64,000 bases of DNA from Polyporus tsugae (taxonomy: Eukaryota > Basidiomycota > Agaricomycetes > Polyporales > Polyporaceae): NCBI GenBank assembly GCA_024305745.1, contig JAHRBS010000007.1:310001-374000 (forward strand). Direction: 5' to 3'. This document shows positions 15,263 through 64,000 of this stretch, piece after piece (within the stretch, counting starts at the first letter, position 1; the number at the start of each line of letters is the position of its first letter). Position numbers and translations under genes: made by a program. Under the pieces are notes generated by a model. It was given only the letters and a program-made list of their open reading frames with translations. It was not told where the DNA came from and searched no databases.

Positions 15263-18298
<3,036 letters not shown>

Positions 18299-18623: not shown

Positions 18624-18626
18624 ATG
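18504..18626 (+). repeat. Junction homology, left (native) version
   Basis: Begins GCACCAAACTGATTG and ends at the shugoshin ATG. Against the version at 31499-31619 it shows six substitutions and a 2-nt CG insertion, mostly in the last 50 bp; the last difference is the T of the ATG. Downstream of it the copies are identical. Confidence 0.85.
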
Positions 18627-20971
18627 AGCAGACGACAGTCGCGTATATCCATCGATGCCCGACAGAATGACACCCTCCTCGAGTTCGAGAACTGTGCGTG
18701 TTCCCAACGGGGTGTTCCCCACCCTCCGTCACCTCCGTCCATGCGATCTCACACTCATACTCCCATGCCTGCCCAGTCAAGAAGAAATTCCTCCTTGCCA
18801 ACAAGCACATCACCAAGTGCGTGCGGCCCCCCCCAGTTATATTGAACACTAACACCGACTGTGGCTGGACAATTAGGTTGAACTCGACCCTTAGCGGACG
18901 GATCGAAGAACTGAACGCACAGATATCCACTCTCTACGTCGAGAACCTCCGCCTTCGCGCTTCAGAGATCGCGCTCACCTCGCAGTTGAAGAAGGAACGG
19001 GAGAAGTCGAGAAAGATCTTGGCAGATACGGAGTCCGCGGTGAGCACGACCTTCATCTGTTGAGGCTGTTATATTGGCCCCCCGCACATGCTCTGCATGA
19101 AATGAGCTCCTCGATCACCTTTGCGCGGATCCTGTACTCGAGTTCTTGACGCGTGTCCCATGAGGATACCTATCAGGAGCTGCTCGTGCAGGCGGTTTGG
19201 CACAGTGGTCGAAGAGTGGGTAGGAGACACTACGCAGCCATCCGCATACGCCCGAAGGCTTTTGTGTGGTCAGGTTGAGGCATCTATGAAACTGGGGTAG
19301 ATGTATGCGTCTGTTCAGGACAAAAGCCCTCTTTTGGATCTTGTTTGAAGCTTTTAGGGCGTACGCCTACCATTCAGAGGTGAAGTAGCGGGGAACACCC
19401 CCATTTCAAGCTCACGAAGGTGTTGCCACACGGTACATGTGGGATGTAACAGTATGATGCTCATACCTTCTTCCTTTGCAGACACACTCGCTCATGAAAC
19501 AATTGGGGCTCATCCGGAAATCTTTCGGCGTTCCTCATGGCCGAACTACCCCCGAGTCTTATCCACCACCTCCACGCGCAAGACGTCCAATTCCTGATCC
19601 CAACGTCTCCCCACCACCCAATCGTATAGCTCGTCCGCCGACAATTCCCGTTCTCGTGGAAGATGAAGAGCCCAATCAGTCGTCTCCGGAAGACATGGAC
19701 GTGGATGACCTACCGGGATCCAGCCCAACGCTGCCGAAGAAGCGCACCAAGACCAGGTCAGGGTCGTCTACTACGAGCCGTCTTCCGGTTCCCCTATCGA
19801 AGGCGCCGTCCCCACCTGCTGTCGGGGTGTTACAATTCGAGTTCGACGAGCAATTGGTCAACGCCGGGAAACGACGACCATCTCGGCGACACAGCGGCCT
19901 CCTGCCAGTGACCAGCGTCTCGATCACAGCAGCTGTCGCTGACAACCTCGATCGCGCTCCCAGCCCCGTTCCCGATTCGCCTATACGGAGGGCGTTGGAA
20001 GAAGACTATTTGGCGACCGCAGAGCCTGATGAAGATGAGGTTGAGGCGATACTTCAGAGCGTCACCAAACGGAAGAGCAGGAGGGAGAGCGATCGAGCGC
20101 GCGAGTCTGATGCGGAGGTGGTGGCCCGGCCACGCGAACGCAAGAAGCGCGTTACGGAGCAACTAGCGGATGGTTTAGGGAGTGGCAAGTTCAAACTGAA
20201 GGACGTCACCAACGCCCAGGCGAGCCGCTCGTCTGGTACGTTCAGGAGACATGAAATATACGCGGGTTCTGGTGTCTCACGAACTCTGCATGACACAGAT
20301 CCCGAGCGGCAGCATACACCGGACGTCGATGCGCCCACCTCCGCCACCAGCCTAACGAGCACCTCTACTCGGAACTTCCTCTCCACACCCGCCACAACCC
20401 CTGCGCCTGGCTCTAAGCCCTCGTCCCATTTGCCGACACCGCGCTCCTCGAGCCCTATTGCGCCTCCATCTCAGTCCGAGCCGGAGCCCTCGGCGACTGG
20501 TCGTGCGCGTAGAGCACGAAGCAGCGTCAACTACGCGGAACCCAAGCTCAATACGTAAGTCTCCAATCGGGTCCTGTATTTCGATGTCTCGGTAACCAAA
20601 TGTCTTCTTTCTACAGGAAGATGCGAAAGCCCGACCCCGCATCAGCAACTGCGGCGTCAAGACGCTCCTCAGCCTCCACCTCGGCAGCCCACGAGGAGCC
20701 TCTACCACTTTCTTCGAGGTCGTCGTCATCGAACGGTACGGATGTTGATCCTGAGCCTGCGCCCGCGGGTACCACGAAGCGCAAGAAGTCCCGGGTGTAC
20801 GCCCCTCCGGAAGACGATGAGGAGAGCGAGGGGACACAGGCCGATGCGGAGTTCGGCAGCCTTCGCACCGGTACATGGGGCGGCGTGGACGGCCGACGGC
20901 GCAGCGTCAACGTATCGGGCGTACGCAGAGTCGAAGGTGACGATACCCGTCGACACAGTATGGCTGTATAG
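18624..20971 (+). CDS. sgo1: Shugoshin, copy 1 (intact, native start)
   Basis: Five exons: 18624-18693, 18777-18816, 18877-19039, 19482-20554, 20617-20971; 566 aa. All splice sites are GT/AG with conserved phase. Exons 1-3 encode the N-terminal coiled coil (ENFKKKFLLANKHITKLN, then RIEELNAQISTLYVENLRL), which in shugoshins forms the homodimer that binds PP2A. The middle is Ser/Pro-rich and disordered. The exon 4/5 join creates the C-terminal SGO motif (SSVNYAEPKLNTKMRKPD), the basic element that binds phosphorylated histone H2A at centromeres. Shugoshin protects centromeric cohesin from separase-linked loss. The start is firm: it is the first in-frame Met and begins the usual basic leader (MSRRQSRIS). 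The intron before exon 4 is 442 nt, much longer than its neighbours. Confidence 0.92.
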
Positions 20972-21411
20972 CCCCCGTGTTGGGGCCGACCTCCCGTGCC
21001 TTCTACCATCGGACTCGGTGGACGGGTCGAGGTTACCTTCCGGTCCACCCATCCTGTTCTCATTTCCGATATCTCGACGCCCTAAGTGCTGAGCCCGCTG
21101 CACGATGATCGGCGCGCCCGCAGCGATGCGGTTATATATGTCTATGGTGATGATGACTTTATGGTATTGATATGATATGTACCCTGATGATCCGCGAGAC
21201 CTTTCAGTTGCCACACTTACTTACGGCGTCTTCCCGCAACGCGCCAGATATATAATATTTCCCCGGCTTCTTGTCAGTACGCAAGCGGAACGAACCAAGC
21301 TGTATCATATGTATCATAACCATATTTTCTTCTCCCCGTGAATATATATTCGTTGTGCTTTGTTGACCGTAAGGGTTGCGAAGGCGCCTCCGTTTCCGAA
21401 TTACTGCGAGC
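20972..21411. other. 3' flank of shugoshin
   Basis: AT-richer stretch with several TATATAAT-like words; likely 3' UTR and terminator region. No gene seen. Repeated at +12,993, +25,986 and +38,979. Confidence 0.4.
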
Positions 21412-21431
21412 CATGCTTGCATGCAAGCATG
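21412..21431. repeat. Perfect 20-bp palindrome
   Basis: CATGCTTGCATGCAAGCATG equals its own reverse complement. Present in all four units (also 34405-34424, 47398-47417, 60391-60410), about 440 bp after the shugoshin stop. Confidence 0.8.
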
Positions 21432-22750
21432 TTTGACTGTCCGTCATTACTCTCACGCTGGCTCTGGCCAGGCCGAACCAACGACGTTCTAATGGGAGAA
21501 CTGCCTGCACATCAGCGGACCTTCCCTTCCGTTCGTCGTCATTCATTAGCATAATATATGGTACATTCCTGTTCCTACAAGACAAAACACTGCGCTGGAA
21601 CGTAGTGGAGACCCCCACCCCCGGATGCGCACTGGCACCGAACCTGACTTTCGGCTGCGCGTCGTTTGCGCGTTCGAGACACTGGTGCGAAACGCCTGTC
21701 GCGGACGACCTGCCTCGTCGTCGTAGCGCTGCTGCACGCATCATGTCGTCGCCCGATAGCCGTTGCGAACACCTGACCTGCTTATCGGAAACGCGTCATT
21801 GGGGGCTGTTCCATGGCACACAGCGAGAACTTGAACTTACTTATCCTGAGGAGCTCGGCCGCCGCAGTTCAAGTATAGGTAGGTGGCGCCACGCTTGTGC
21901 GGCGTATGGCAGCGATGCTTGCATCTGTAGGTGGAAGTCAAGCAAATGCCGCTAACTGGCCTCGCGAGCGCGGTCACCGAGGACAAACAATGGTCGAGAA
22001 CGCTCTGTGAGACGAACAAACAGATGTCAGTCGCCGTGACCGTGGTAGGGAGCAGAAAAAGAGATGGCTTACTGCCGACATCGCCGTCGCACAGCCTATT
22101 CGAGCGCGGTCCCAAACAAAATCTCGAGCGGACCTGCCACAGTTTCCCACCGGTATTGGAGATGGTCTGCATGCGGACATCATATCCCACGACCTGGACC
22201 CAGACAGTTCGGGATTGTCCTTGCGAGACGGCTTAATTCCCCCTCAATGACTCGGATCGCAGGATATCTGAGGGTAAGGCGTGTCAGCAATACGACAATC
22301 TATGTCCGAAATTACATACCCAAGTGGACACCGCGTGTACCCGTGTGCAAGCCCGAGATAGCCACAGCGAGTCGGCGGGAACGCAGAGCACGCGCAACTG
22401 TGCCTTTTACATCGCGCCGCAGGATGTCACCCCACGCCCAGGATGCCGCTTGCAACGCCTGCTATTCGCACAGAAAAAAGGAACGTCAGAGCGAACACAA
22501 GCCACCGATGACATGATGTTGAAAGGGACGTACCACGTCGTGGCGGCCATCACAGCGACGAGCATGTCGGCGATGGCTCCACCTCGGAAGGTAGGTGTCG
22601 TGGATGAGGACGGGTAGGTGAAGATGACATGGCTACGGGTAGGACAGATGTGAGAGCGAGTTGGAGGCGGATGCTACAAATCCGCTAGCACACTTCTGAC
22701 CTGCTTTTATGGTCAGCCAGGCGCCTTATTTTCGCTTCGTATGCGTATTC

Positions 22751-22788
22751 TTGCAACGCAACCGCGTCTCCGGGAGACAGCGTTGCAA
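22751..22788. repeat. Nested inverted repeat / hairpin
   Basis: A 9-bp outer stem (TTGCAACGC / GCGTTGCAA) encloses an inner GTCTCC/GGAGAC-type stem. It could fold as RNA or as a cruciform. Also at +12,993, +25,986 and +38,979. Confidence 0.6.
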
Positions 22789-23136
22789 TCGATGAATCTT
22801 GTCCGCATCGGAAGCGAATTGTCCCTCTTCGTGTAGCGGTTCATTCCACGGCGCGGAATTGCGCCGCGCCGCATGCAGTTCGTTGGCGGGAAACCCTTAG
22901 AAACTATCAGAAATCGCGCTATCGACTCATAGTCGTACCTTTTCCCAGCCATTCTGCATATGCGCAGTCCCAAGAATCCTTCGCTTGAACTTCAAGGCGG
23001 CGCCGCCCAATATCGCTTGTACGGTAGCCCTGTGGGCAAAAGCCCAAATTGATCGACCGTCGCCTTGTACTTCTCAGGGATGCCCGAGACCTCTCTCCGC
23101 GGTGCCTGATTGTCCCTGTCAATCGGGAGAGCCAAG

Positions 23137-23445
23137 CAATGAGGTCATCACACTTGCCTCTGGGACGTTCTGAACGGAGTCTGACTTCAGCATGAGCTCT
23201 ACAATACAGCACGTACACTTGCCGCTAGGCTTCGACGTCCCGTCCTGAATTCGTCGCGACACATTGAGAGTGCCCCCGCGCGATGCCAAGACTAATTTTC
23301 GCGTCGACTGGAGGATGGATCGCTGGCGCGACAATCGCAAAGAAGCAGCCTTGCCAACCGTCATCTTCGCAATAACGTTTCATATTTGCCAGCGCGATTG
23401 GAATCAATCTAGAATGTAGAAATGAGGTCATCACGCTAGCCTCAG
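23137..23445 (+). repeat. Short direct repeat pair
   Basis: AATGAGGTCATCAC plus a similar flank occurs at about 23138-23162 and 23421-23445, roughly 283 bp apart. Confidence 0.5.
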
Positions 23446-24092
23446 CGTGACTCTAATTCAATACGAACGGAATCTCGAAATAGCTTACCCAATGAACCTC
23501 GGACGTCAGTGTGGAGAAGTGAGACTGCACGCGCAACACCTTTTAGTCTGACCTTGGTTACCAATTCGTTCGCCTGCTCTCCATCGACCACGGCCGACGT
23601 GCACTGGCCGGCCGGCACGTCCCTCCGTATCTCGGATAGTCTTGCTACGTTTCTCGTACACCGAGTAGTGCACGTTTCAAGTCTGGAAACAATGTGCTAG
23701 TCAGTGTGGACCAGAACGTTACGCTTGCACCGCCGTAATACCACTCACACGACGACCTCGACCTGCTGACAACTACGTCCGCACGAGACGTCGATCCGGA
23801 TCGTCTGCCGACGGTTCCCGTTCACGGAGGGGAGGGTCTTCGTTTTCCAAGACCTGCCTAGCCTAATTTCCGTTGTTAGTGTTCGCATAGGTTGCGCGTA
23901 CAATCAGGGGAGGCTCGAGTACCGGTAAGAAAGATGAGGCGTACTCCAGCGGTGCCCGGCTTCAATGTAACTTATTGCCAATCACGGAAGTCTAGTCCAG
24001 CGCACAGATCTCAGCGCCGACAACCGGCACAGTCTGAGCTTTCAAACAGTTGGCCGCGTCCAAACGAGTGCTCGTCCCAGGCATTTAGCACT

Positions 24093-24414
24093 CAACAGAA
24101 ATTCGCCAAATTATCATGAACTGGCAATTTCCCGAGAAGCCATGGGCTCGACACGACCATGCAACCCGAACGCGTAACTTCCGGTCGCTAGTGCGGCGTC
24201 GCGATGAGGGGTGTCATGCCCAATGTGTCATATATTACCGCCGTCGAGTAAGCCACCGTCTAAGCTTTGAGGACTCGGAGTATAGAGATCGTGCTGAAAT
24301 ACCAGCCCGTCCCCGCCTCTCAGAGCTCGACAGAAATTCGTCAAGTTATCAAGAACTAGACGAATTCCACACGCCCCGGAATGCGCAACTTCCGGTCCCT
24401 AACGAGGCGTCACG
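24093..24414 (+). repeat. Diverged internal direct repeat
   Basis: Segment 24093-24206 resembles 24328-24414. Shared words include ACAGAAATTCG, CAA(A/G)TTATCA and AACTTCCGGTC, with small indels between them. It points to an old local duplication inside the unit. Confidence 0.55.
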
Positions 24415-25068
24415 CGAGCACATGGAAGGTGGGGCAGGACCGTGCCTTGGGCTCTGCTGCATTCAAACACGACGAAGCCTGGGACCGCGAGTCTCCCCTG
24501 ATGGGCCCGATTGGCCACAGAACACGTCGACGAGATCAATGCAGCAGTAAAAAAGATAACGCACCACGTACATGCGTGTTTCACCTCAGCGGGCTCCGCG
24601 CAATTTCGCTTGGGCGACAGCCCGGCAACGCTCCCGTATGACACCAATTGCCCGGTTGCAGTGTGCCAGCATTGTCGTTGCAGCGTCGCACTCGTGCTAA
24701 TCAAGGGATCTCAGCTGTCTGGCATAGCAATGGTCGTCAGCAAACCAGCAATCAGTGCAATGCAACGACTAACCGGGATATTGAGTACTGGCCACACGCT
24801 TGTAGATCCCCGTGCAGCTTGGCCGAACGTGCAGATCTGGTACACAACGTAAACGTCTGCGGTCATACCGCGCGCCTTGGAAACCATTTCGCTTACCACC
24901 AGTACGGAGATTGTGAGCGGAGAATTTGAGGTACGCGAGGTGCACAGTGCCGATCTCGCCTTGGACAGCTTGGCAACGCGACTCCACGCTCGTCGCCGAT
25001 CTGCGATCCGTGAGTAAGGACATCATAGGAACACATAGATCCCTTCTGACGTACCGAGATTGGCTCGT

Positions 25069-25887
25069 TTAGTCGACCTCGCTCGACCGGACACTGTGGA
25101 TCGGACTTGGATGCTTATTGCATGCTCGTGACATCACCGACATTGGCGAGATGCAACCACGGTCCTTCGGAAGGAATCGCCCGAGAGGCTGGATGTCCGC
25201 CAGAGCGCGAGTTCGTCTTTTCGTGGTTAGATAAACGTCATTTCCACGCCGTAACAGACACCTGTGGTAAGTACCGTCAGCACAAGCACTTCCTAGCTCG
25301 ACATTTGCTTGAGCTAACCTTCTCGTAGCGAATATTTGCGGCCGCACACAGAACCCTGCTGTAAGGAACGACCCTGATGTTAAAACTCGCCGATTGGTCG
25401 GGCACAAGTCGTGATTCAGCCTTAGCGTTGCAATTGGCACGTACTTACAGTTGCAATCCGTAGTTCTGCCGATTTGTTCTGCTGGAGCTTGACCACTGAG
25501 CTGTACTTGGTTTCAAAGTGGCGCGAGAAACGTCCTCCACGTCGCAGCAGTGTGCCGGTGTCTGCAAAGACGCCAATGTCAATATCTTGCGCCGGGCGTC
25601 AGGTCCGGACGGGACAGGTTCGAAGCTGGCTGTATGCGCGCAGGTAGACAATATTGATTCCACTTTCGAGTAAGATAAGCAGTCAAAACACACGAAACAG
25701 ACCAACCTGGAAATTGATAGTAAATGATGTACGACGTACCTGGTGTTTCCCCGCGCATAGGTTGGGTAGCTGTATGCCGTCTCAGGGTCTTCAATCGCAC
25801 GTCCGGCTCTAGACGAGCCCGGACATCGACGAACTCCGGTAGCACGACGCGTCTGCATGCCAAAACAATATGGCCAAAATCATTCAT
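25069..25887 (-). pseudogene. Unidentified spliced minus-strand gene remnant
   Basis: From an ATG at 25887 (MNDFGHIVLACRRVVLPEF) the frame runs to a GTACGT donor near 25741. A later segment (about 25586-25449) reads DIDIGVFADTGTLLRRGG and FSRHFETKYSSVVKLQQ and ends at a good GTAAGTAC donor. A downstream segment after a TTACAG acceptor contains GSVCGRKYSLREG before another donor/acceptor pair (about 25325-25265). Frames between segments could not all be joined without stops. No family recognised. A real gene with misjudged splice sites is possible. Confidence 0.25.
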
Positions 25888-25972
25888 TTAACGCTCTACA
25901 CCTCAAATGGCGCCGCTCTATCGTCTACGGACCAGACTACTCGCATCTCCTTCACACGTCCACGCGAACAAC

Positions 25973-26621
25973 ATGCCTGCTATTCGTGACCATTCCACTA
26001 CCTCAACGCGCATATGCGGGCACGAGCGAGCGTACTCGACCGGCCTCGCAAAGCTCAAGGCTGCGCTCCGTGATAAAATGACGGGCAAACTCAGTACGTA
26101 CCCATCGGGCACACACTCAGGCTCGTCGCAATACGGTCTAACGAAAAGAAATGCTAGGGCAACTCACCGGGAATCCAAACGTGAAGATGCGATGGTCGAA
26201 AAAGGGGTACGCACTCGGCGTCGTCGTCCGCGGTGGCCACCACTTGCGCTCATGGCCGACGTACGCCAATATCCCCTTCGCGGACCCCAGCGCGATCCCG
26301 GGCGGCCAGCCCACCATGCGCTTCCTCCTCGCGCTCTGGGACGTCGGTATCCTCCGCTTCGAGCCTGCGACCGCCAAAGACATCGACCTCGCCCGCCGAA
26401 ACCCGGATGCCGTCCTGCCGGGCACACCGCCCGCACTCCCCGCTCCGTTGTGCTGGGGCCCATTCGGGCGGAACGACATCGGCCTTGGTCGCCGCCGTCC
26501 AAAGACAAACCCGCTCGGCCTGCCGCTAAGACGTCCGAAAAATGGCCCAAAGACTGCAAAGCTCTTGTTTGACTCAGACGTGGAGGACGACGAGATTGTC
26601 GACACAGAGGCGGAGATCTAG
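25973..26621 (+). CDS. Hypothetical protein, 194 aa, unit copy 1
   Basis: Two exons, 25973-26093 and 26158-26621, with a 64-nt intron (GTACGT...CTAACG...CTAG) that keeps phase across KLRQLTGNPNVKMRW. The protein starts MPAIRDHSTTSTRI, has a basic helical region (GLAKLKAALRDKM), a Trp/Gly/Pro core (SWPTYANIPFADPSAIPGG, LLALWDVGILRFEPAT), a Pro-rich stretch (FGRNDIGLGRRR) and an acidic end (DSDVEDDEIVDTEAEI). An ATG at 25907 would add 22 residues, but 25973 gives a cleaner start. It looks like a lineage-specific agaricomycete protein; function unknown. It is the best-preserved unit gene besides shugoshin, with no internal stop. Confidence 0.6.
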
Positions 26622-26944
26622 TAGCGAGAACCGAGACCAGTCGGGTAGAGCCATGCTGTAGTTGATTCAGTCCTCTTCTGTTGCTGACGACGAGCACTGA
26701 GAAGGACTAGCGAACGTAAAAGGCACCAGGGATAGTGATTTACCACGGTGCAAGCGCATACAGCAGTGGCCGGCGGGAACGGTTGGGTGGGGACGTGGTG
26801 GTCAAGAGCAAGCGGGAAATGCGATGACGCGCGACGCGAGAGCTCTGTTTCCCATAATGGCAGGCACGAGCGCCTCGGGCGTGGTGGCGCTCTGCGAGCC
26901 GATTTCCCAAGTCCGTCCCTCTCTCTTCGCGCTTGACATCTATC

Positions 26945-26982
26945 ATTGGTCCATTGGTCCATGAAGCCCGTCGGATAAAAAT
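26945..26982 (+). promoter_or_regulatory. CCAAT-type boxes and TATA-like element
   Basis: Two inverted CCAAT boxes (ATTGG at 26945 and 26953) and GGATAAAAAT at 26973-26982, a promoter-like arrangement ahead of the small ORF at 27009. Repeated in units 2 and 3. Confidence 0.4.
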
Positions 26983-27008
26983 TCCTGGAACATGGCAAGA
27001 CTCTTCGG

Positions 27009-27266
27009 ATGTCTGTTGCATACATCTCAGCTCTGGGCCTTTGCGTGCTTGCTGCCAGGGGCTTGGAAATTTGTGCTACCGCTGTTCCGACTCCCGAGTC
27101 GTCTTCTCCGAGGCCAGGCTCCGACTCCTTTGCAATCGGATATGCTTGCAATACATTCCCTGATAATGTATGTGTCAGTTGGTGAGCTATATTTTACTTT
27201 CTCCAAGTGCTGAGTGATAGAATCCACAGGACCGTGCACTGTGATCGCGCAAATTTGCTTCCCTGA
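27009..27266 (+). CDS. Possible small secreted cysteine-containing peptide, unit copy 1
   Basis: Exons 27009-27181 and 27230-27266 (48-nt intron) give 69 aa; unspliced, the frame stops after 58 aa. The N-terminus MSVAYISALGLCVLAARG is hydrophobic and followed by ICATAVPTPESSS, which offers an Ala-x-Ala cleavage site, so it may be secreted. The mature part has Cys residues (YACNTF, DNVCVSW, HCDR). The TATA-like element is only about 30 bp before the ATG, which leaves a very short leader and weakens the call. Alternative: a chance ORF. Confidence 0.35.
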
Positions 27267-27869
27267 AGTCTCGTGGTCTAAACATTCTGAGTATACTGAT
27301 ATGCCAGATCTCCCAGTTGAAAGCAAATGACCGAGAAATTCACACTGACAAATATCATTCTGAGCGCTGCACGTTGCATCTGTTCTGAATATCTCATCTG
27401 AATATCGCGTAGCATCTTGAATGTGTGCCGAATGTTCTGAAGCTTCTGAGTGTCCTAAGCGTCGGCTTGCTGCACACAGAAAACTTCAAGCCAGTCATGA
27501 TCGGCTATGAAATGTTGAGTAACAAACCATAGCAACGCGGGGGCGAGACTCCGCCCGACCCCCGGCGCAGCTGATTGACCCTGGATGCATGACATGTTTC
27601 CAAATGTTAGGCTGGCTGATGTCAGAGAAATTGACAGCAACCTACCAGTGTCGGACACTCATCCGGACTGCTCGCCATCCTATCCCACCATCAGGGTCCG
27701 TCCCCTCGCTCAAACCCCTTTCCTTCTCATCTACCCGCCACCCCGCCGACGTCCTTCCCCATCACCCCCTCCCTCACCTCCATGCTTTCTACGCCAATGA
27801 TGTGCGTGCTCGTCCACCTCAATCATTCCCTCCGACATCTATCTCACCAGTGCGAGGAACGTGGTTTAG

Positions 27870-28698
27870 ACGAGCATACAATCGCCCGTATGCGTACTAG
27901 AAGACGAGCCTGTGCCTATCAAGGTGAGTACGCACAACTTCGACATCCACAGGTCGTGTGCTTACCAAGAAAATTTCACCGTGTGTGTTCAGCCATTCCA
28001 TGTGAAGTTAGAATGGCCCGAAAGTCGCAGACCCAGTGGAACACAAGAGCCGACCATTCGTGGAGGTGCATTGCGCTCCGAGCCAAGGCGTCCGATGTCG
28101 AGCGCTTGACTGATCAGTGTTCGGCAGTTTGCGATCGGCGGCCAAGTGCCTGCATTCAACATGATCCAAATTGCGGCTCTCCCTCCCTTCGTCCCACCAA
28201 CGCTCCGTCAACGTCGAATCGCCCCACAACATGGACTACCCTGGACGATTTCGTGCATAACACGACCCTCCCGCATAATATTCACCCCTGAATGTCACCG
28301 CCGGCGGGTGCGTGAACTCGCTTCGGAAGTGTGGCGTGTGCGGTACGGTGTCCCTTGGACCGCCTTGGACCGCACATTGCATTTTGAATGGGGTATATGC
28401 GCCGGTAAATACCTTTACAGCGAACTCCAGCACGATTACTGACTTAGGTTGTCCAATAGTGCCGGATCGCGCGGGAGATGGCGGCGGAGTCAAGTTTTCT
28501 TCGTGTTTGCAAGTTGGGACGGCCGCGCATGCACAAGTCTACGGCGACGGGTTCCAGGTGCTGCCTCCGCACGCGAAGCTTGGCATCCAACGCACTTGCG
28601 AGCTCGTTTCTCGCCCGAGTTCTCGACCGCGTGACTGGATGACAGCCCGCGATCCCCCGCCCGCTGTCTCGGACATGCCCGGAGCCCTCGCTCTCTGA
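27870..28698 (+). pseudogene. Spliced ORF with one premature stop, unit copy 1
   Basis: Starting at a TTTAG acceptor, exon 27870-28404 and exon 28448-28698 join in phase through a GTAAAT...CTTAG intron of 43 nt to give about 262 codons. Protein-like runs include EDEPVPIKVSTHNFDIHRS, ENFTVCVQPFHVKLEWPE, FAIGGQVPAFNMIQIAALPP and AHAQVYGDGFQVLPPHAK. A single TGA at 28107-28109 (after RRPMSSA) interrupts the first exon; the frame resumes straight after. The 5' exon was not located. No family recognised. The stop is present in all three copies seen, so the damage predates amplification. Confidence 0.4.
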
Positions 28699-28720
28699 CC
28701 TGGCTCTGCTGCTGTCCAAC

Positions 28721-29208
28721 GTGCTTGGAGCTGCTTGGAGTCGAGGAAGAGAGCGCAAGTGCGCCGGCCGCTGGGTCTCCCTTTGCGTCTCTGCCTGCCG
28801 GCCTCCCAGGCCCGCACTCCGTCCTGCGTCCGGCCCGCCCACGTTCCGGCGCGGATCCCTCGTGGTTCACTTCTCCTGCGTCCTACGTCCTGCCGTCCGA
28901 AGATTGCTCTCCGACTCTCCCTCCTCGTTTTTCAACTCCCTCGCCGACGATGGGAACATAGGACTTCAGGTTTGTGGCCGTGATTTCGTCCTTTCGCCTT
29001 GTGATTCTGACCACATCTTTTGCAGGGGATCCGTCTTTCGAGTGCGACGACTAAGGATGTGGCGAACCTCGATGATATCAGCTTTGACGGCTCGTCAAAC
29101 TGCGTAAGCATCATCCTGGATCAGAAGACGAACCGGATGAGACATATAAACGGACGAACCTGTCGCGACGGCAGCGTCCAGATACTAAACTCGGCCGACA
29201 CCACGTGA
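28721..29208 (+). CDS. Candidate two-exon ORF, start unknown, unit copy 1
   Basis: Exon to 28969 and exon 29026-29208 join in phase over a 56-nt intron with a CTGACC branch site and a TTTTGCAG acceptor. The joined region reads FFNSLADDGNIGLQ then GIRLSSATTKDVANLDD and ISFDGSSNCVSIILDQKTNR. The frame is open back to a TGA near 28639 but has no ATG, so an upstream exon would be needed. The part before FFNS is Arg/Ser/Pro-rich and may be non-coding. It lies at the left edge of the inner repeat block. Same at +12,993 and +25,986. Confidence 0.3.
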
Positions 29209-53252: not shown

Positions 53253-53855
53253 AGTCTCGTGGTCTAAACATTCTGAGTATACTGATATGCCAGATCTCCC
53301 AGTTGAAAGCAAATGACCGAGAAATTCACACTGACAAATATCATTCTGAGCGCTGCACGTTGCATCTGTTCTGAATATCTCATCTGAATATCGCGTAGCA
53401 TCTTGAATGTGTGCCGAATGTTCTGAAGCTTCTGAGTGTCCTAAGCGTCGGCTTGCTGCACACAGAAAACTTCAAGCCAGTCATGATCGGCTATGAAATG
53501 TTGAGTAACAAACCATAGCAACGCGGGGGCGAGACTCCGCCCGACCCCCGGCGCAGCTGATTGACCCTGGATGCATGACATGTTTCCAAATGTTAGGCTG
53601 GCTGATGTCAGAGAAATTGACAGCAACCTACCAGTGTCGGACACTCATCCGGACTGCTCGCCATCCTATCCCACCATCAGGGTCCGTCCCCTCGCTCAAA
53701 CCCCTTTCCTTCTCATCTACCCGCCACCCCGCCGACGTCCTTCCCCATCACCCCCTCCCTCACCTCCATGCTTTCTACGCCAATGATGTGCGTGCTCGTC
53801 CACCTCAATCATTCCCTCCGACATCTATCTCACCAGTGCGAGGAACGTGGTTTAG

Positions 53856-54684
53856 ACGAGCATACAATCGCCCGTATGCGTACTAGAAGACGAGCCTGTG
53901 CCTATCAAGGTGAGTACGCACAACTTCGACATCCACAGGTCGTGTGCTTACCAAGAAAATTTCACCGTGTGTGTTCAGCCATTCCATGTGAAGTTAGAAT
54001 GGCCCGAAAGTCGCAGACCCAGTGGAACACAAGAGCCGACCATTCGTGGAGGTGCATTGCGCTCCGAGCCAAGGCGTCCGATGTCGAGCGCTTGACTGAT
54101 CAGTGTTCGGCAGTTTGCGATCGGCGGCCAAGTGCCTGCATTCAACATGATCCAAATTGCGGCTCTCCCTCCCTTCGTCCCACCAACGCTCCGTCAACGT
54201 CGAATCGCCCCACAACATGGACTACCCTGGACGATTTCGTGCATAACACGACCCTCCCGCATAATATTCACCCCTGAATGTCACCGCCGGCGGGTGCGTG
54301 AACTCGCTTCGGAAGTGTGGCGTGTGCGGTACGGTGTCCCTTGGACCGCCTTGGACCGCACATTGCATTTTGAATGGGGTATATGCGCCGGTAAATACCT
54401 TTACAGCGAACTCCAGCACGATTACTGACTTAGGTTGTCCAATAGTGCCGGATCGCGCGGGAGATGGCGGCGGAGTCAAGTTTTCTTCGTGTTTGCAAGT
54501 TGGGACGGCCGCGCATGCACAAGTCTACGGCGACGGGTTCCAGGTGCTGCCTCCGCACGCGAAGCTTGGCATCCAACGCACTTGCGAGCTCGTTTCTCGC
54601 CCGAGTTCTCGACCGCGTGACTGGATGACAGCCCGCGATCCCCCGCCCGCTGTCTCGGACATGCCCGGAGCCCTCGCTCTCTGA
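53856..54684 (+). pseudogene. Spliced ORF with premature stop, unit copy 3
   Basis: Identical, including the TGA, here at 54093-54095. Confidence 0.38.
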
Positions 54685-54886
54685 CCTGGCTCTGCTGCTG
54701 TCCAACGTGCTTGGAGCTGCTTGGAGTCGAGGAAGAGAGCGCAAGTGCGCCGGCCGCTGGGTCTCCCTTTGCGTCTCTGCCTGCCGGCCTCCCAGGCCCG
54801 CACTCCGTCCTGCGTCCGGCCCGCCCACGTTCCGGCGCGGATCCCTCGTGGTTCACTTCTCCTGCGTCCTACGTCCTGCCGTCCGA

Positions 54887-57006
54887 AGATTGCTCTCCGA
54901 CTCTCCCTCCTCGTTTTTCAACTCCCTCGCCGACGATGGGAACATAGGACTTCAGGTTTGTGGCCGTGATTTCGTCCTTTCGCCTTGTGATTCTGACCAC
55001 ATCTTTTGCAGGGGATCCGTCTTTCGAGTGCGACGACTAAGGATGTGGCGAACCTCGATGATATCAGCTTTGACGGCTCGTCAAACTGCGTAAGCATCAT
55101 CCTGGATCAGAAGACGAACCGGATGAGACATATAAACGGACGAACCTGTCGCGACGGCAGCGTCCAGATACTAAACTCGGCCGACACCACGTGAAGGCTT
55201 ACAAGTAGACTGGAGTAGTTGGGCATGGCATCCGCGAGTCGCTCCCCGCAACATCGAGCGCGCTAAAGAGCTCAAAAGTCGGCTACGACGGCCTTCATGT
55301 CCCACACTCGCGAAGGTCGCGAGGTGCTCTGCCATCCTCAACTCTTCAAGTCGATCGGTATCAAGGTCCGCCGCTGCGTCCATGACTGTCCTGCCGTTGG
55401 TACGCACCCGCCGCCACCAACACTCGGCCTCTTCGCATCTCCGTTCTGGTTGCGCCACGAGCGTCCGAGTTCTCCGCCTCGGATGCGGCTCCTCCCAGAC
55501 TGTATCTCCGTTTCTTTGCGTGGGACTAGGTGGGACTGTGATCGCGATCGAACGCGCCGCACTCTCTTGCCCTCTCCAGCCCAGTTCTCCCTTCCATGCC
55601 GCCGGTTCTTTGACCCCTCGCTCGTTTTGCCAAGATTGTTCTCCGACTCTCTGCCGGCTTTCCGCTCATCCATCGTGTTCGCCTTCCCCGAGCATTCTAC
55701 TGGCACCCGGTCGGCGTCGCTCGTTCTCCCGGCGGAGGCTCGCTCGATTGAAGTTTGGTCCGGCATGGCCTGCGTTCCGTCGAACACATCCGGGGGTTCG
55801 CTCTCGGACACTCTGGCGGACCGCCCGTGCTCTCCTTATCAGTGTAGGAGAAAGCACCGACGCGCTGTGTCTCACGCCGGCTCTATCGCGCATTTGCGGG
55901 AATCACCACAGGCGAGTTCATGTCCACCTCTTGAATGCTTCTCCGAGACTTTGCCGCTGACTCTCCCGCCAGTTTGTCCTTGGCGTTTGATGAGGAAGAA
56001 AAACACTCTGCTCCCGACCCATCCGCCACCACGCGCCATGAGCGTGTTACCAGTACTGGGTTCGCGCCGTCACCTGGTGCGTTCACCCGGTTTCGTCTGT
56101 TTGCGATTGTTTGAGCTGACGTTCCTCTCATGTAGGACTCACGGTCGGCTACGACTGCTTTGGCGGATCTGTGATGTCGGCCATCCTCAACTCTTCAAGT
56201 CGATCGGCATCAAGCTCCCAATGTACGGTCCACCCTGCTTCTACCACCATCCGGGTCCTTTGGTACGCACTGGCCACCGCCGATGTTCCTTTCTCTGTCG
56301 TCGCGAGTCGGACGGTGCGCCACGGGCGTTCTAGTCTGTCGCCTCGAGCGCACCTCCTCCCCGACTGTGCCGCTCCTTTCATGTGGAACGGAGGGCGGCG
56401 CGAACTCGCTCAACCACGACTGGGATCCACCCGCGCTCCTGCGTCCGGAGCTCGGTTCTCTATCCAGTTCTCGCTCCCCTCCATTGCCTCTCTGCAACCT
56501 TTCTCGTTCTCTCGAGATTGTTCTCCGACTCTCCCGCCGGCTTTCCGCTCATGTCTTGATGAGGAAGAAGAACGCCCTGGTCGTGTTCCCCTTCGCGCGG
56601 CTCCCGAGCGTCTTACCGGTACCAGGGGGGAGTAAATAGTTCTCGCCGCGCAGGCGGTGCAACCGCTTTCTTTATCCCACCACGCCGGCTCTACCGCGCA
56701 TTTGCGGGAATCATTGCTGGTGAGTTCGTCTCCACGTCGTTAAATGCTTCCCCGAAGCTTTTCCGCTGACTCTCCTGCCAGCCCCTCCTTGGCGCGTTTG
56801 ATGAGGAAGAATGCGCTGCTCCGGGCTGGTTCGCCACCACGGGCCGCGAGTGTCTTATAAGTACTGGGCTGGCGCGGGTGCGTCCGCGCGGTTTCGTCTG
56901 TTGGCGATTGTTTGAGCTGATGTTCCTCTGTTGCAGGATGCGCGGTCGCACATCCTCAACTCTTCAAGTCGGTCGCCGCTTGTCGACTCGAATGCAAGTG
57001 TACGCG
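54887..57006 (+). repeat. Inner diverged tandem repeats, unit copy 3
   Basis: Same block at +25,986. Confidence 0.75.
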
Positions 57007-57602
57007 ACCCTCCAGTCCGGGTGCGGAGCTGCTGGTGCCCGGTAGCTGTTAAGCGGTACGGGTGTCCTGGGCGCAGTCATGTCAACGAGGCCCTCTGAAT
57101 GCTCGTACTTAGTTGAAATATGATGTCCATGCTTTCTGAAGTAACCGGAGTGTGTAGACCACGAGTAGCGTAGATCTTCCTGCGTACACTGCGTGCGAGT
57201 CGCCAGGGCGGGGTCCTTTGAAGTAGCGTAGACTCCCGGCGTGCATACAGAGTGCTACTGTACAACGACACTTAGTACTACTACCACTAACTAGTACAAA
57301 CGACACTTAGTACTTAGTACAAATGAGAGTCAAGGGCTGTCCACGGTCGGTTTCTGTGCGTGCCAAAACGGGCACAACACGACGCGAGATTGCGATCTGC
57401 GGTGGAGCAGAGTGGAGCCGATCTGTAGCCTAAACGCGCATCCTTCTCTCTCGATCACAGCTCGATCGCCACGACCGCGAGCTGGCACCAAACTGATTGT
57501 TGCCTTGTGATCGCTCCACGCGACGAGAACTCGAACAACCACCTCGCCATCTCCCACAACGACGACGACCCCCCCAGGACCCCCTGCTCGCCGTCGCCCG
57601 CG

Positions 57603-59950
57603 ACGAGCAGACGACAGTCGCGTATATCCATCGATGCCCGACAGAATGACACCCTCCTCGAGTTCGAGAACTGTGCGTGTTCCCAACGGGGTGTTCCCCA
57701 CCCTCCGTCACCTCCGTCCATGCGATCTCACACTCATACTCCCATGCCTGCCCAGTCAAGAAGAAATTCCTCCTTGCCAACAAGCACATCACCAAGTGCG
57801 TGCGGCCCCCCCCAGTTATATTGAACACTAACACCGACTGTGGCTGGACAATTAGGTTGAACTCGACCCTTAGCGGACGGATCGAAGAACTGAACGCACA
57901 GATATCCACTCTCTACGTCGAGAACCTCCGCCTTCGCGCTTCAGAGATCGCGCTCACCTCGCAGTTGAAGAAGGAACGGGAGAAGTCGAGAAAGATCTTG
58001 GCAGATACGGAGTCCGCGGTGAGCACGACCTTCATCTGTTGAGGCTGTTATATTGGCCCCCCGCACATGCTCTGCATGAAATGAGCTCCTCGATCACCTT
58101 TGCGCGGATCCTGTACTCGAGTTCTTGACGCGTGTCCCATGAGGATACCTATCAGGAGCTGCTCGTGCAGGCGGTTTGGCACAGTGGTCGAAGAGTGGGT
58201 AGGAGACACTACGCAGCCATCCGCATACGCCCGAAGGCTTTTGTGTGGTCAGGTTGAGGCATCTATGAAACTGGGGTAGATGTATGCGTCTGTTCAGGAC
58301 AAAAGCCCTCTTTTGGATCTTGTTTGAAGCTTTTAGGGCGTACGCCTACCATTCAGAGGTGAAGTAGCGGGGAACACCCCCATTTCAAGCTCACGAAGGT
58401 GTTGCCACACGGTACATGTGGGATGTAACAGTATGATGCTCATACCTTCTTCCTTTGCAGACACACTCGCTCATGAAACAATTGGGGCTCATCCGGAAAT
58501 CTTTCGGCGTTCCTCATGGCCGAACTACCCCCGAGTCTTATCCACCACCTCCACGCGCAAGACGTCCAATTCCTGATCCCAACGTCTCCCCACCACCCAA
58601 TCGTATAGCTCGTCCGCCGACAATTCCCGTTCTCGTGGAAGATGAAGAGCCCAATCAGTCGTCTCCGGAAGACATGGACGTGGATGACCTACCGGGATCC
58701 AGCCCAACGCTGCCGAAGAAGCGCACCAAGACCAGGTCAGGGTCGTCTACTACGAGCCGTCTTCCGGTTCCCCTATCGAAGGCGCCGTCCCCACCTGCTG
58801 TCGGGGTGTTACAATTCGAGTTCGACGAGCAATTGGTCAACGCCGGGAAACGACGACCATCTCGGCGACACAGCGGCCTCCTGCCAGTGACCAGCGTCTC
58901 GATCACAGCAGCTGTCGCTGACAACCTCGATCGCGCTCCCAGCCCCGTTCCCGATTCGCCTATACGGAGGGCGTTGGAAGAAGACTATTTGGCGACCGCA
59001 GAGCCTGATGAAGATGAGGTTGAGGCGATACTTCAGAGCGTCACCAAACGGAAGAGCAGGAGGGAGAGCGATCGAGCGCGCGAGTCTGATGCGGAGGTGG
59101 TGGCCCGGCCACGCGAACGCAAGAAGCGCGTTACGGAGCAACTAGCGGATGGTTTAGGGAGTGGCAAGTTCAAACTGAAGGACGTCACCAACGCCCAGGC
59201 GAGCCGCTCGTCTGGTACGTTCAGGAGACATGAAATATACGCGGGTTCTGGTGTCTCACGAACTCTGCATGACACAGATCCCGAGCGGCAGCATACACCG
59301 GACGTCGATGCGCCCACCTCCGCCACCAGCCTAACGAGCACCTCTACTCGGAACTTCCTCTCCACACCCGCCACAACCCCTGCGCCTGGCTCTAAGCCCT
59401 CGTCCCATTTGCCGACACCGCGCTCCTCGAGCCCTATTGCGCCTCCATCTCAGTCCGAGCCGGAGCCCTCGGCGACTGGTCGTGCGCGTAGAGCACGAAG
59501 CAGCGTCAACTACGCGGAACCCAAGCTCAATACGTAAGTCTCCAATCGGGTCCTGTATTTCGATGTCTCGGTAACCAAATGTCTTCTTTCTACAGGAAGA
59601 TGCGAAAGCCCGACCCCGCATCAGCAACTGCGGCGTCAAGACGCTCCTCAGCCTCCACCTCGGCAGCCCACGAGGAGCCTCTACCACTTTCTTCGAGGTC
59701 GTCGTCATCGAACGGTACGGATGTTGATCCTGAGCCTGCGCCCGCGGGTACCACGAAGCGCAAGAAGTCCCGGGTGTACGCCCCTCCGGAAGACGATGAG
59801 GAGAGCGAGGGGACACAGGCCGATGCGGAGTTCGGCAGCCTTCGCACCGGTACATGGGGCGGCGTGGACGGCCGACGGCGCAGCGTCAACGTATCGGGCG
59901 TACGCAGAGTCGAAGGTGACGATACCCGTCGACACAGTATGGCTGTATAG
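57603..59950 (+). CDS. sgo1: Shugoshin, copy 4, start codon lost
   Basis: Identical to copies 2 and 3. The whole gene lies within the window although the unit does not. Confidence 0.8.
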
Positions 59951-62900
59951 CCCCCGTGTTGGGGCCGACCTCCCGTGCCTTCTACCATCGGACTCGGTGG
60001 ACGGGTCGAGGTTACCTTCCGGTCCACCCATCCTGTTCTCATTTCCGATATCTCGACGCCCTAAGTGCTGAGCCCGCTGCACGATGATCGGCGCGCCCGC
60101 AGCGATGCGGTTATATATGTCTATGGTGATGATGACTTTATGGTATTGATATGATATGTACCCTGATGATCCGCGAGACCTTTCAGTTGCCACACTTACT
60201 TACGGCGTCTTCCCGCAACGCGCCAGATATATAATATTTCCCCGGCTTCTTGTCAGTACGCAAGCGGAACGAACCAAGCTGTATCATATGTATCATAACC
60301 ATATTTTCTTCTCCCCGTGAATATATATTCGTTGTGCTTTGTTGACCGTAAGGGTTGCGAAGGCGCCTCCGTTTCCGAATTACTGCGAGCCATGCTTGCA
60401 TGCAAGCATGTTTGACTGTCCGTCATTACTCTCACGCTGGCTCTGGCCAGGCCGAACCAACGACGTTCTAATGGGAGAACTGCCTGCACATCAGCGGACC
60501 TTCCCTTCCGTTCGTCGTCATTCATTAGCATAATATATGGTACATTCCTGTTCCTACAAGACAAAACACTGCGCTGGAACGTAGTGGAGACCCCCACCCC
60601 CGGATGCGCACTGGCACCGAACCTGACTTTCGGCTGCGCGTCGTTTGCGCGTTCGAGACACTGGTGCGAAACGCCTGTCGCGGACGACCTGCCTCGTCGT
60701 CGTAGCGCTGCTGCACGCATCATGTCGTCGCCCGATAGCCGTTGCGAACACCTGACCTGCTTATCGGAAACGCGTCATTGGGGGCTGTTCCATGGCACAC
60801 AGCGAGAACTTGAACTTACTTATCCTGAGGAGCTCGGCCGCCGCAGTTCAAGTATAGGTAGGTGGCGCCACGCTTGTGCGGCGTATGGCAGCGATGCTTG
60901 CATCTGTAGGTGGAAGTCAAGCAAATGCCGCTAACTGGCCTCGCGAGCGCGGTCACCGAGGACAAACAATGGTCGAGAACGCTCTGTGAGACGAACAAAC
61001 AGATGTCAGTCGCCGTGACCGTGGTAGGGAGCAGAAAAAGAGATGGCTTACTGCCGACATCGCCGTCGCACAGCCTATTCGAGCGCGGTCCCAAACAAAA
61101 TCTCGAGCGGACCTGCCACAGTTTCCCACCGGTATTGGAGATGGTCTGCATGCGGACATCATATCCCACGACCTGGACCCAGACAGTTCGGGATTGTCCT
61201 TGCGAGACGGCTTAATTCCCCCTCAATGACTCGGATCGCAGGATATCTGAGGGTAAGGCGTGTCAGCAATACGACAATCTATGTCCGAAATTACATACCC
61301 AAGTGGACACCGCGTGTACCCGTGTGCAAGCCCGAGATAGCCACAGCGAGTCGGCGGGAACGCAGAGCACGCGCAACTGTGCCTTTTACATCGCGCCGCA
61401 GGATGTCACCCCACGCCCAGGATGCCGCTTGCAACGCCTGCTATTCGCACAGAAAAAAGGAACGTCAGAGCGAACACAAGCCACCGATGACATGATGTTG
61501 AAAGGGACGTACCACGTCGTGGCGGCCATCACAGCGACGAGCATGTCGGCGATGGCTCCACCTCGGAAGGTAGGTGTCGTGGATGAGGACGGGTAGGTGA
61601 AGATGACATGGCTACGGGTAGGACAGATGTGAGAGCGAGTTGGAGGCGGATGCTACAAATCCGCTAGCACACTTCTGACCTGCTTTTATGGTCAGCCAGG
61701 CGCCTTATTTTCGCTTCGTATGCGTATTCTTGCAACGCAACCGCGTCTCCGGGAGACAGCGTTGCAATCGATGAATCTTGTCCGCATCGGAAGCGAATTG
61801 TCCCTCTTCGTGTAGCGGTTCATTCCACGGCGCGGAATTGCGCCGCGCCGCATGCAGTTCGTTGGCGGGAAACCCTTAGAAACTATCAGAAATCGCGCTA
61901 TCGACTCATAGTCGTACCTTTTCCCAGCCATTCTGCATATGCGCAGTCCCAAGAATCCTTCGCTTGAACTTCAAGGCGGCGCCGCCCAATATCGCTTGTA
62001 CGGTAGCCCTGTGGGCAAAAGCCCAAATTGATCGACCGTCGCCTTGTACTTCTCAGGGATGCCCGAGACCTCTCTCCGCGGTGCCTGATTGTCCCTGTCA
62101 ATCGGGAGAGCCAAGCAATGAGGTCATCACACTTGCCTCTGGGACGTTCTGAACGGAGTCTGACTTCAGCATGAGCTCTACAATACAGCACGTACACTTG
62201 CCGCTAGGCTTCGACGTCCCGTCCTGAATTCGTCGCGACACATTGAGAGTGCCCCCGCGCGATGCCAAGACTAATTTTCGCGTCGACTGGAGGATGGATC
62301 GCTGGCGCGACAATCGCAAAGAAGCAGCCTTGCCAACCGTCATCTTCGCAATAACGTTTCATATTTGCCAGCGCGATTGGAATCAATCTAGAATGTAGAA
62401 ATGAGGTCATCACGCTAGCCTCAGCGTGACTCTAATTCAATACGAACGGAATCTCGAAATAGCTTACCCAATGAACCTCGGACGTCAGTGTGGAGAAGTG
62501 AGACTGCACGCGCAACACCTTTTAGTCTGACCTTGGTTACCAATTCGTTCGCCTGCTCTCCATCGACCACGGCCGACGTGCACTGGCCGGCCGGCACGTC
62601 CCTCCGTATCTCGGATAGTCTTGCTACGTTTCTCGTACACCGAGTAGTGCACGTTTCAAGTCTGGAAACAATGTGCTAGTCAGTGTGGACCAGAACGTTA
62701 CGCTTGCACCGCCGTAATACCACTCACACGACGACCTCGACCTGCTGACAACTACGTCCGCACGAGACGTCGATCCGGATCGTCTGCCGACGGTTCCCGT
62801 TCACGGAGGGGAGGGTCTTCGTTTTCCAAGACCTGCCTAGCCTAATTTCCGTTGTTAGTGTTCGCATAGGTTGCGCGTACAATCAGGGGAGGCTCGAGTA

Positions 62901-64000
62901 CCGGTAAGAAAGATGAGGCGTACTCCAGCGGTGCCCGGCTTCAATGTAACTTATTGCCAATCACGGAAGTCTAGTCCAGCGCACAGATCTCAGCGCCGAC
63001 AACCGGCACAGTCTGAGCTTTCAAACAGTTGGCCGCGTCCAAACGAGTGCTCGTCCCAGGCATTTAGCACTCAACAGAAATTCGCCAAATTATCATGAAC
63101 TGGCAATTTCCCGAGAAGCCATGGGCTCGACACGACCATGCAACCCGAACGCGTAACTTCCGGTCGCTAGTGCGGCGTCGCGATGAGGGGTGTCATGCCC
63201 AATGTGTCATATATTACCGCCGTCGAGTAAGCCACCGTCTAAGCTTTGAGGACTCGGAGTATAGAGATCGTGCTGAAATACCAGCCCGTCCCCGCCTCTC
63301 AGAGCTCGACAGAAATTCGTCAAGTTATCAAGAACTAGACGAATTCCACACGCCCCGGAATGCGCAACTTCCGGTCCCTAACGAGGCGTCACGCGAGCAC
63401 ATGGAAGGTGGGGCAGGACCGTGCCTTGGGCTCTGCTGCATTCAAACACGACGAAGCCTGGGACCGCGAGTCTCCCCTGATGGGCCCGATTGGCCACAGA
63501 ACACGTCGACGAGATCAATGCAGCAGTAAAAAAGATAACGCACCACGTACATGCGTGTTTCACCTCAGCGGGCTCCGCGCAATTTCGCTTGGGCGACAGC
63601 CCGGCAACGCTCCCGTATGACACCAATTGCCCGGTTGCAGTGTGCCAGCATTGTCGTTGCAGCGTCGCACTCGTGCTAATCAAGGGATCTCAGCTGTCTG
63701 GCATAGCAATGGTCGTCAGCAAACCAGCAATCAGTGCAATGCAACGACTAACCGGGATATTGAGTACTGGCCACACGCTTGTAGATCCCCGTGCAGCTTG
63801 GCCGAACGTGCAGATCTGGTACACAACGTAAACGTCTGCGGTCATACCGCGCGCCTTGGAAACCATTTCGCTTACCACCAGTACGGAGATTGTGAGCGGA
63901 GAATTTGAGGTACGCGAGGTGCACAGTGCCGATCTCGCCTTGGACAGCTTGGCAACGCGACTCCACGCTCGTCGCCGATCTGCGATCCGTGAGTAAGGAC
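57603..64000 (+). repeat. 13-kb tandem unit, copy 4 (cut by window end)
   Basis: The first 6,398 bp of the unit, about 49%, with the same junction as copies 2 and 3. The window ends inside the decayed section, so the right limit of the array is not seen. Confidence 0.9.

What the first reader, a model, noticed from the sequence alone, without database searches (positions are those of the whole stretch)
18624..64000. At least 3.5 identical head-to-tail copies of a 12,993-bp unit carrying shugoshin
Seen directly: the period is exact and all ORFs compared translate identically in every copy. Tandem amplification of a centromere-cohesion gene is unusual, since shugoshin dosage affects chromosome segregation. 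Identity over 13 kb including decayed non-coding DNA means the amplification is very recent, is kept homogeneous, or is an assembly artefact.
Basis: seen in the sequence. Interest (0 to 1): 0.9.

Follow-up and report, generated by a model that had tools for sequence, protein, structure and literature searches.

The report
Headless shugoshin copies in tandem array
A mushroom chromosome (probably Ganoderma tsugae) carries four identical back-to-back 13-kb copies of a segment with the chromosome-cohesion gene shugoshin, but only the first copy keeps the gene's start codon, so the array likely does not raise full-length shugoshin; a second, uncharacterised gene is intact in every copy, and its relatives lie in similar repeats at five other places in the genome.

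Summary
The tandem array is real in this assembly. There are four exactly identical 12,993-bp copies (C7:328626-380597), then a fifth, partial copy holding only the shugoshin segment at 96.55% identity. Copy 1 has ATG; copies 2, 3, 4 and 5 have ACG, and copy 5 also has a +1 frameshift. So the shugoshin-dosage reading is weak. The internal shugoshin segments switch once from right-flank type to left-flank type (8 columns, then 95), the signature of one homologous crossover between diverged shugoshin copies. The same switch occurs in an unrelated array on contig C2 (151, then 12). The cargo left intact in all four copies is a 194-aa Ganoderma gene of unknown function. Its paralogs occupy 13 loci in this genome, 6 of them tandem repeats of 11-15 kb. 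By eye, no identical-score pair at that spacing appears among the listed kinase, P450 or F-box matches. I read this as homologous-recombination amplification tied to that gene family. Circle integration is the main rival. Copy number 4 is unverified without reads.

The parts
18626..31618 (+). full unit copy 1 (12,993 bp)
   Evidence: exact lag match
31619..44611 (+). full unit copy 2, identical
44612..57604 (+). full unit copy 3, identical
57605..64000 (+). unit copy 4, cut by the window end; goes on to C7:380597 (window position 70597), followed by partial diverged copy 5 up to C7:383351
18504..21373 (+). left shugoshin repeat R-left (2.87 kb; 96.4% identical to R-right at C7:380478-383351)
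18624..20971 (+). shugoshin gene copy 1: exons 18624-18693, 18777-18816, 18877-19039, 19482-20554, 20617-20971; 566 aa; ATG present
   Evidence: orthologs start MSRR; Pfam
31617..33964 (+). shugoshin copy 2, start codon ACG at 31617-31619
44610..46957 (+). shugoshin copy 3, start codon ACG at 44610-44612
57603..59950 (+). shugoshin copy 4, start codon ACG at 57603-57605
18626..19095 (+). 470-bp stretch identical in R-left, the hybrid repeats and R-right; the crossover is inferred to lie here
25973..26621 (+). second gene in unit copy 1: exons 25973-26093 and 26158-26621, 194 aa; Ganoderma family of unknown function (86-90% identity to P0171-P0174)
38966..39614 (+). second gene in unit copy 2, identical
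51959..52607 (+). second gene in unit copy 3, identical (copy 4 lies at C7:374952-375600, outside the window)
15266..18412 (-). left neighbour, divergent: protein-kinase gene with an Arg/Ser-rich N-terminus (PRP4-like by recall; that the kinase frame and the Arg/Ser-rich frame are one gene is inferred), marks the native 5' side of the shugoshin locus
   Evidence: Pfam Pkinase at 15266-15898; frames; the name PRP4 is recalled

Best explanation
This is a tandem array of four identical 12,993-bp units, likely produced by homologous crossover between two diverged direct copies of the shugoshin gene, in which copies 2-5 have ACG where copy 1 has ATG. How it works: the left shugoshin copy (native upstream side and ATG) and the right copy (ACG start, +1 frameshift) flank about 10 kb that carries a second gene. 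An unequal exchange inside their 470-bp identical stretch gives a hybrid repeat whose first bases are right-type and whose remainder is left-type, and adds one unit; further exchanges between now-identical units would add more. Shown here: the units, the single type switch, the start-codon difference, and the same topology at a second, unrelated locus. Inferred: that the exchange was an unequal crossover on the chromosome, that copies 2-4 make no full-length shugoshin, and that any selection acts on the second gene rather than on shugoshin.
For: Four equal units between diverged repeat ends (96.4%). Of 105 variable columns among left, internal and right repeats, 8 are right-type then 95 left-type with no exception (the other 2 are end-of-alignment columns); the independent C2:36-66 kb array gives 151 then 12 with no exception. 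The crossover falls in a 470-bp identical stretch (0 of 469 aligned differences, against 2.4-6% elsewhere in R). All 9 aligned homologs whose N-terminus is present start MSRR, which makes ACG a true start loss. The right neighbour is the ortholog of G. sinense GSI_04647, next in number to its shugoshin GSI_04648, so the 10-kb body has likely come between two copies of a once-single locus. Second-gene paralogs: 6 of 13 loci are 11-15 kb tandem repeats, while by eye no same-contig, same-strand, same-score pair 9-16 kb apart exists among 118 P450 matches, 147 F-box matches or the listed part of 155 kinase matches; Fisher p about 8e-8 against the F-box rows.
Against: No reads are available, so the number 4 is not verified, and consensus calling from mixed reads could hide small differences. 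Single-crossover integration of a circle gives the same topology. dN/dS between copy 1 and copy 5 is 0.21, which means both were under constraint for most of their divergence; that fits poorly with an old pseudogene and better with two functional lineages that met recently. ACG can serve as a weak start in some fungi (recalled). A family locus read as a single copy (C14) has no flanking direct repeats, so the repeats are not a fixed part of the gene's surroundings. In the third array (C2:616-659 kb) the switch is not clean: 42-44 columns of one type, 1-3 of the other, and 8 where the internal repeat differs from both ends (53 variable columns). The controls are score listings of the best candidates, not a scan of the whole genome.
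Confidence: 0.6

Rival explanations
1. The array entered as a circle of about 13 kb (or a multimer of it) that carried a headless shugoshin segment plus the second gene and integrated by one crossover at the native shugoshin gene. The host gene would then be rebuilt at the left end (native ATG joined to the circle's 3' part), with a displaced headless copy at the right end.
For: One event explains why the left repeat borders the kinase neighbour, the right repeat borders the conserved GSI_04647 neighbour and the body appears only between them. G. sinense looks like the empty site (consecutive tags). dN/dS of 0.21 fits two recently separate functional lineages. Unit sizes are narrow, 11.2-14.7 kb at six loci. 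Tandem integration of a circle was proposed for a 17-kb segment in wine yeast (PMC3053389, passages seen).
Against: No circle can be seen from an assembly. The three arrays read share no nucleotide sequence and only the second gene at protein level, so there is no common element backbone. The single-copy C14 locus has no flanking direct repeats.
Confidence: 0.22
2. The array, or its copy number, is an assembly artefact: the 470-bp identical stretch forms a loop that the assembler walked more than once.
For: The loop length would be exactly 12,993 bp, and the four units differ at 0 positions; the two bodies of the C2:36-66 kb array are also identical (9,026 bp). The matching published assembly used PacBio reads with N50 18.45 kb, SMARTdenovo and Pilon (PMC8481371, passages seen), so 52 kb of identical sequence exceeds most reads.
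Against: Reads of that length span the 470-bp stretch and often a whole unit, so the hybrid junction should rest on reads (inference). Artefacts should not single out one gene family. The three bodies of the C2:616-659 kb array differ from one another by 6 to 18 substitutions over about 7.8 kb. Three of ten named Ganoderma clusters of the second gene stand for several members (P0177: 13, P0171: 4, P0181: 4; the other seven 1 each), while the three Ganoderma clusters of the right-neighbour gene have 1 each. BUSCO completeness was 98.5% in the paper.
Confidence: 0.13
3. The array is kept for extra shugoshin.
For: From the base after the start-codon difference on, copies 2-4 equal copy 1, so the rest of the gene is intact.
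Against: Start codon ACG in copies 2-4; the first ATG of the spliced copy 2 is out of frame and gives 27 codons; the first in-frame ATG is codon 96. The right-type upstream region shares only about 120 bp with the native one.
Confidence: 0.05

Closest known systems
CUP1 tandem arrays of Saccharomyces cerevisiae (PMC4232551; title and abstract start seen in a search listing only)
   Same: identical head-to-tail gene units in a fungus
Zygosaccharomyces region B in wine yeast, a 17-kb circle proposed to integrate, in places in tandem (PMC3053389, passages seen)
   Same: similar size, tandem option, circle-integration model
   Different: region B was proposed to insert by nonhomologous recombination as one shared segment; here the arrays share only one gene and have diverged repeats at both ends
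Non-allelic homologous recombination between flanking segmental duplications (general knowledge)
   Same: diverged direct repeats, hybrid junction with one switch
   Different: recurrent in this genome around one small gene family

Membership tests
Tandem array made by homologous crossover between flanking repeats | head-to-tail units of fixed period | tested here: met
Tandem array made by homologous crossover between flanking repeats | direct homologous repeats at both array ends | tested here: met
   R-left and R-right, 96.4% over 2.87 kb
Tandem array made by homologous crossover between flanking repeats | internal repeats are hybrids with a single switch | tested here: met
   8 then 95 columns, no exceptions
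Tandem array made by homologous crossover between flanking repeats | copy number varies between strains | not testable with these tools
   no sister-strain reads or assemblies held
Circle integrated by single crossover (wine-yeast region B type) | unoccupied site in a relative | tested here: inconclusive
   consecutive locus tags GSI_04647/GSI_04648 in G. sinense; DNA not seen
Circle integrated by single crossover (wine-yeast region B type) | shared element sequence between integration sites | tested here: not met
   no nucleotide match among the C7, C2:36-66 kb and C2:616-659 kb arrays; one shared protein family only
Circle integrated by single crossover (wine-yeast region B type) | extrachromosomal circle present | not testable with these tools
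   needs DNA from the strain
Shugoshin (Sgo1) gene | Shugoshin_C motif | tested here: met
   spliced copy-1 protein 33.6 bits against cut-off 23.3; 27.7 bits at five places in the genome; as an isolated ORF 23.2
Shugoshin (Sgo1) gene | Shugoshin_N coiled coil | tested here: inconclusive
   spliced protein 27.0 bits, E 3.8e-6, below the curated cut-off of 30; the same stretch aligns nearly residue for residue with orthologs annotated with Shugoshin_N
Shugoshin (Sgo1) gene | conserved start codon, copies 2-4 | tested here: not met
   ACG in copies 2-4
GTF2I-like fold (second gene) | fold match to GTF2I repeats | tested here: inconclusive

The most novel reading that the evidence does not exclude
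A small uncharacterised gene family marks a previously unrecognised kind of 11-15 kb self-amplifying unit in Ganoderma genomes: the unit integrates at a host gene by homologous exchange, rebuilds that host gene at one border, leaves a headless copy at the other, and multiplies in tandem. Shugoshin would be one of several host genes used as a docking arm.
Probability: 0.17. Interest if true: 0.85.

Novelty: new variant of a known kind. Interest (0 to 1): 0.55.

Why it matters
It corrects a tempting reading (extra doses of a cohesion protector) to one that can be tested: a single base at the array border decides that only one of four otherwise identical gene copies has a start codon. More broadly, it links one unknown gene family to recurrent tandem amplification at 6 of 13 loci in one genome. 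That would be a natural system for studying how large fungal tandem arrays arise, whether selection or a self-amplifying property drives them, and how essential genes at the borders survive.

Tried and rejected
Genome-wide assembly duplication: rejected as a full account, because no exact tandem pair was seen (by eye, in listings sorted by score) among 118 P450 rows (92 of 403 first-look candidates scored), 147 F-box rows (150 of 409 scored) or the listed kinase rows (155 matches found, 119 of 316 scored, the last rows not listed). The nearest case is an F-box pair 9,945 bp apart with different scores (C8:782574 and C8:792519, 40.3 and 40.5 bits), which looks like ordinary tandem paralogs. Dikaryon haplotypes joined end to end: unlikely, since the matching published strain is a protoplast-derived monokaryon and sequence beyond the repeats is not duplicated. 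A dispersed transposon as the unit: a 1.5-kb body segment was found only in the four copies, and a 2.4-kb segment only there apart from a repeat inside the unit and two short matches on C17; a 9.9-kb query gave an uninformative result. rDNA as the unit: no 5.8S match in the assembly. A flanking-repeat structure at every second-gene locus: not found at C14. Pfam gives no family for the second gene (best E 0.11 among 21 members) or for five ORFs of the C2 repeat arms. Structure searches gave only a weak lead. A search for Shugoshin_N in the genome gave nothing, with no control ringing. A clean single switch in the C2:616-659 kb array was expected and not found. The G. leucocontextum telomere-to-telomere paper does not mention shugoshin in its main text (PMC10817607, passages seen).

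Full report
WHAT IS THERE. The window is C7:310001-374000 of a 43,241,137-base, 18-contig fungal genome. Comparing the window with itself at lag 12,993, every base matches from 18626 on, and the last mismatch is 18625. With the sequence to the right added, the array has four full units that are equal letter for letter, and then a partial fifth copy of 2.75 kb at 96.55% identity. The left end also shares 118 bp (94.9%) with the end of the unit. So a 2.87-kb repeat, R, lies at both ends of the array in diverged form (R-left C7:328504-331373, R-right C7:380478-383351, 96.4%).

WHICH ORGANISM. The closest shugoshin is from Ganoderma sinense (83%). A published Ganoderma tsugae assembly has 18 contigs and 43.26 Mb (PMC8481371; passages seen, outline and abstract). 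This is very likely that assembly, but the identification rests on these two numbers and on kinship. It came from a monokaryon, PacBio reads of N50 18.45 kb at about 220-fold depth, SMARTdenovo and Pilon. 'Shugoshin' does not occur in that paper's main text, and 'tandem' occurs only in connection with repeat-finding software.

THE SHUGOSHIN GENE. R is the shugoshin gene: five exons and 566 aa in copy 1. The spliced protein scores 33.6 bits for Shugoshin_C (cut-off 23.3) and 27.0 bits for Shugoshin_N, under the curated cut-off of 30. Shugoshin_C is found at five places in the genome, all in this array. Twelve sequences were aligned, the query included; two ENA fragments lack the start, and the other 9 homologs all start MSRR. 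At the matching position copy 1 has ATG (window 18624) and copies 2, 3, 4 and 5 have ACG. In the spliced copy 2 the first ATG is out of frame and gives 27 codons, the first in-frame ATG is codon 96 of 566, and the only ATG within 400 bp upstream opens a 36-codon frame that does not reach the gene. Copies 2-4 are therefore predicted not to make full-length shugoshin by ordinary initiation. Weak initiation at ACG, or an upstream exon spliced in, is not excluded. Copy 5 also carries a +1 shift before the Shugoshin_C motif; from exon 4 on its frame stays open for 504 codons because the last intron is read through.

HOW THE ARRAY AROSE. I aligned R-left, an internal R and R-right. Of 105 variable columns, 2 lie at the alignment edge; the other 103 split into 8 right-type columns followed by 95 left-type columns, with no exception. 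Between them lies a 470-bp stretch identical in all copies, against 2.4-6% divergence in exon 4, exon 5, intron 3, the upstream bases and the 3' region. This is what a single homologous crossover between two diverged copies leaves behind. The start-codon difference lies exactly at the 5' border of that stretch, which is why the extra copies are headless: they inherit the right copy's first bases. dN/dS between copies 1 and 5 is 0.21 (26 synonymous, 16 non-synonymous changes), so both lineages were constrained until recently.

THE ANCESTRAL LOCUS. The gene right of R-right corresponds to GSI_04647 of G. sinense, whose shugoshin is GSI_04648; Trametes cinnabarina (g85, g86) and Sparassis (SCP_0412580, SCP_0412590) also have consecutive tags in the same two calls. 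On the left is a kinase gene; whether that neighbour is conserved was not tested. So a single shugoshin next to these neighbours is the likely older state, and the 10-kb body is new. Either an unequal exchange followed an earlier duplication, or a circle carrying a shugoshin segment integrated by one crossover. The topology is the same, and I could not separate them.

OTHER ARRAYS. Searching the genome with this protein gave 27 matches, 4 of them first exons of the C7 copies; the other 23 fall into 13 loci. Six loci are tandem: C7 (4 copies, 12,993), C2:43.7 kb (2 copies, 12,861), C2:625.5 kb (3 copies, 12,651), C9:918.7 kb (2 copies, 12,527), C6:63.0 kb (2 copies, 14,653) and C2:134.8 kb (3 copies, 11,178 and 11,198). 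I read two of the five sister arrays in full. The C2:36-66 kb array has diverged end repeats (3.84 kb, 95.9%), internal repeats with a clean single switch, 151 columns then 12, and two identical 9,026-bp bodies. The C2:616-659 kb array has three bodies that differ from one another by 14, 6 and 18 substitutions over about 7.8 kb, and its switch is not clean: of 53 variable columns 42-44 are of one type, 1-3 of the other and 8 fit neither. For C9 I saw only that two 3.4-kb stretches are identical; for C6 and C2:134 kb I have positions and scores only, and the third C2:134 kb copy scores lower. The three arrays read share no nucleotide sequence and only this protein. A single-copy locus on C14 has no direct repeats of that kind, but resembles the C2:36-66 kb body in patches and has an 871-bp inverted repeat.

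CONTROLS. In listings sorted by score I found, by eye, no two matches with the same contig, strand and score 9-16 kb apart: 0 of 118 P450 rows, 0 of 147 F-box rows, and none among the listed kinase rows (155 found, some not listed). Against the F-box rows, 6 of 13 loci gives Fisher p = 8e-8. Rows are not exactly genes, only the best first-look candidates were scored (92 of 403, 150 of 409 and 119 of 316), and the family may simply live in unstable regions, so the p-value is a guide only. In the protein collection, three of ten named Ganoderma clusters of the second gene stand for several members (13, 4 and 4), while the three Ganoderma clusters of the right-neighbour gene have 1 each. This hints at near-identical copies in other assemblies, but members could also be strains.

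ARTEFACT? The 470-bp stretch could form a loop of exactly 12,993 bp, and zero differences in 3 x 12,993 bases would also follow from re-walking a path or from averaging reads. Against a pure artefact stand long reads, the distinguishable copies in a sister array, the second array with its own diverged ends, and the specificity for one gene family. I take the array as likely real and the copy number as unverified. If real and independently called, zero differences bound divergence below about 8e-5 per base.

VERDICT. The shugoshin-dosage interpretation does not. The array is a recombination product whose extra shugoshin copies lack the start codon. The more interesting thread is an unknown gene family that sits in 11-15 kb tandem repeats at 6 of its 13 loci in this genome. 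Library searches on shugoshin duplication, Ganoderma assemblies, tandem duplications, circles and fungal arrays (listings only, except where passages are cited) showed no description of this, but most subscription papers are not held.

Noticed in passing
window 2632-6595 and C7:395432-399383: A 3.99-kb inverted repeat (93.8%) with a 619-codon F-box frame on each side flanks the array; the two F-box matches are 83 kb apart.
   Followed up: partly
C7:317132-317868 and C7:394291-395050: A further inverted repeat (85%) and smaller ones lie on both sides of the array, hinting at a rearrangement-prone region.
   Followed up: no
whole genome G000: No 5.8S rRNA match was found (39 of 1354 first-look candidates scored), so the rDNA seems to be missing from this assembly, withheld, or missed.
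   Followed up: no
protein collection: Named Ganoderma shugoshin hits in the best 120 of 289 come only from G. sinense, while the right-neighbour gene is also found in G. leucocontextum and G. adspersum; the shugoshin locus may be unusual or mis-annotated there too.
   Followed up: no
L043 and L044, C14:852859-853716 and C14:861115-861984: An 871-bp inverted repeat (89%) brackets a single-copy member of the second-gene family, like long terminal inverted repeats.
   Followed up: no
window 29886-30961 (unit positions 11261-12336): Inside each unit there is a 278-bp direct repeat at 78% identity and smaller ones nearby, with no Pfam-supported gene.
   Followed up: no
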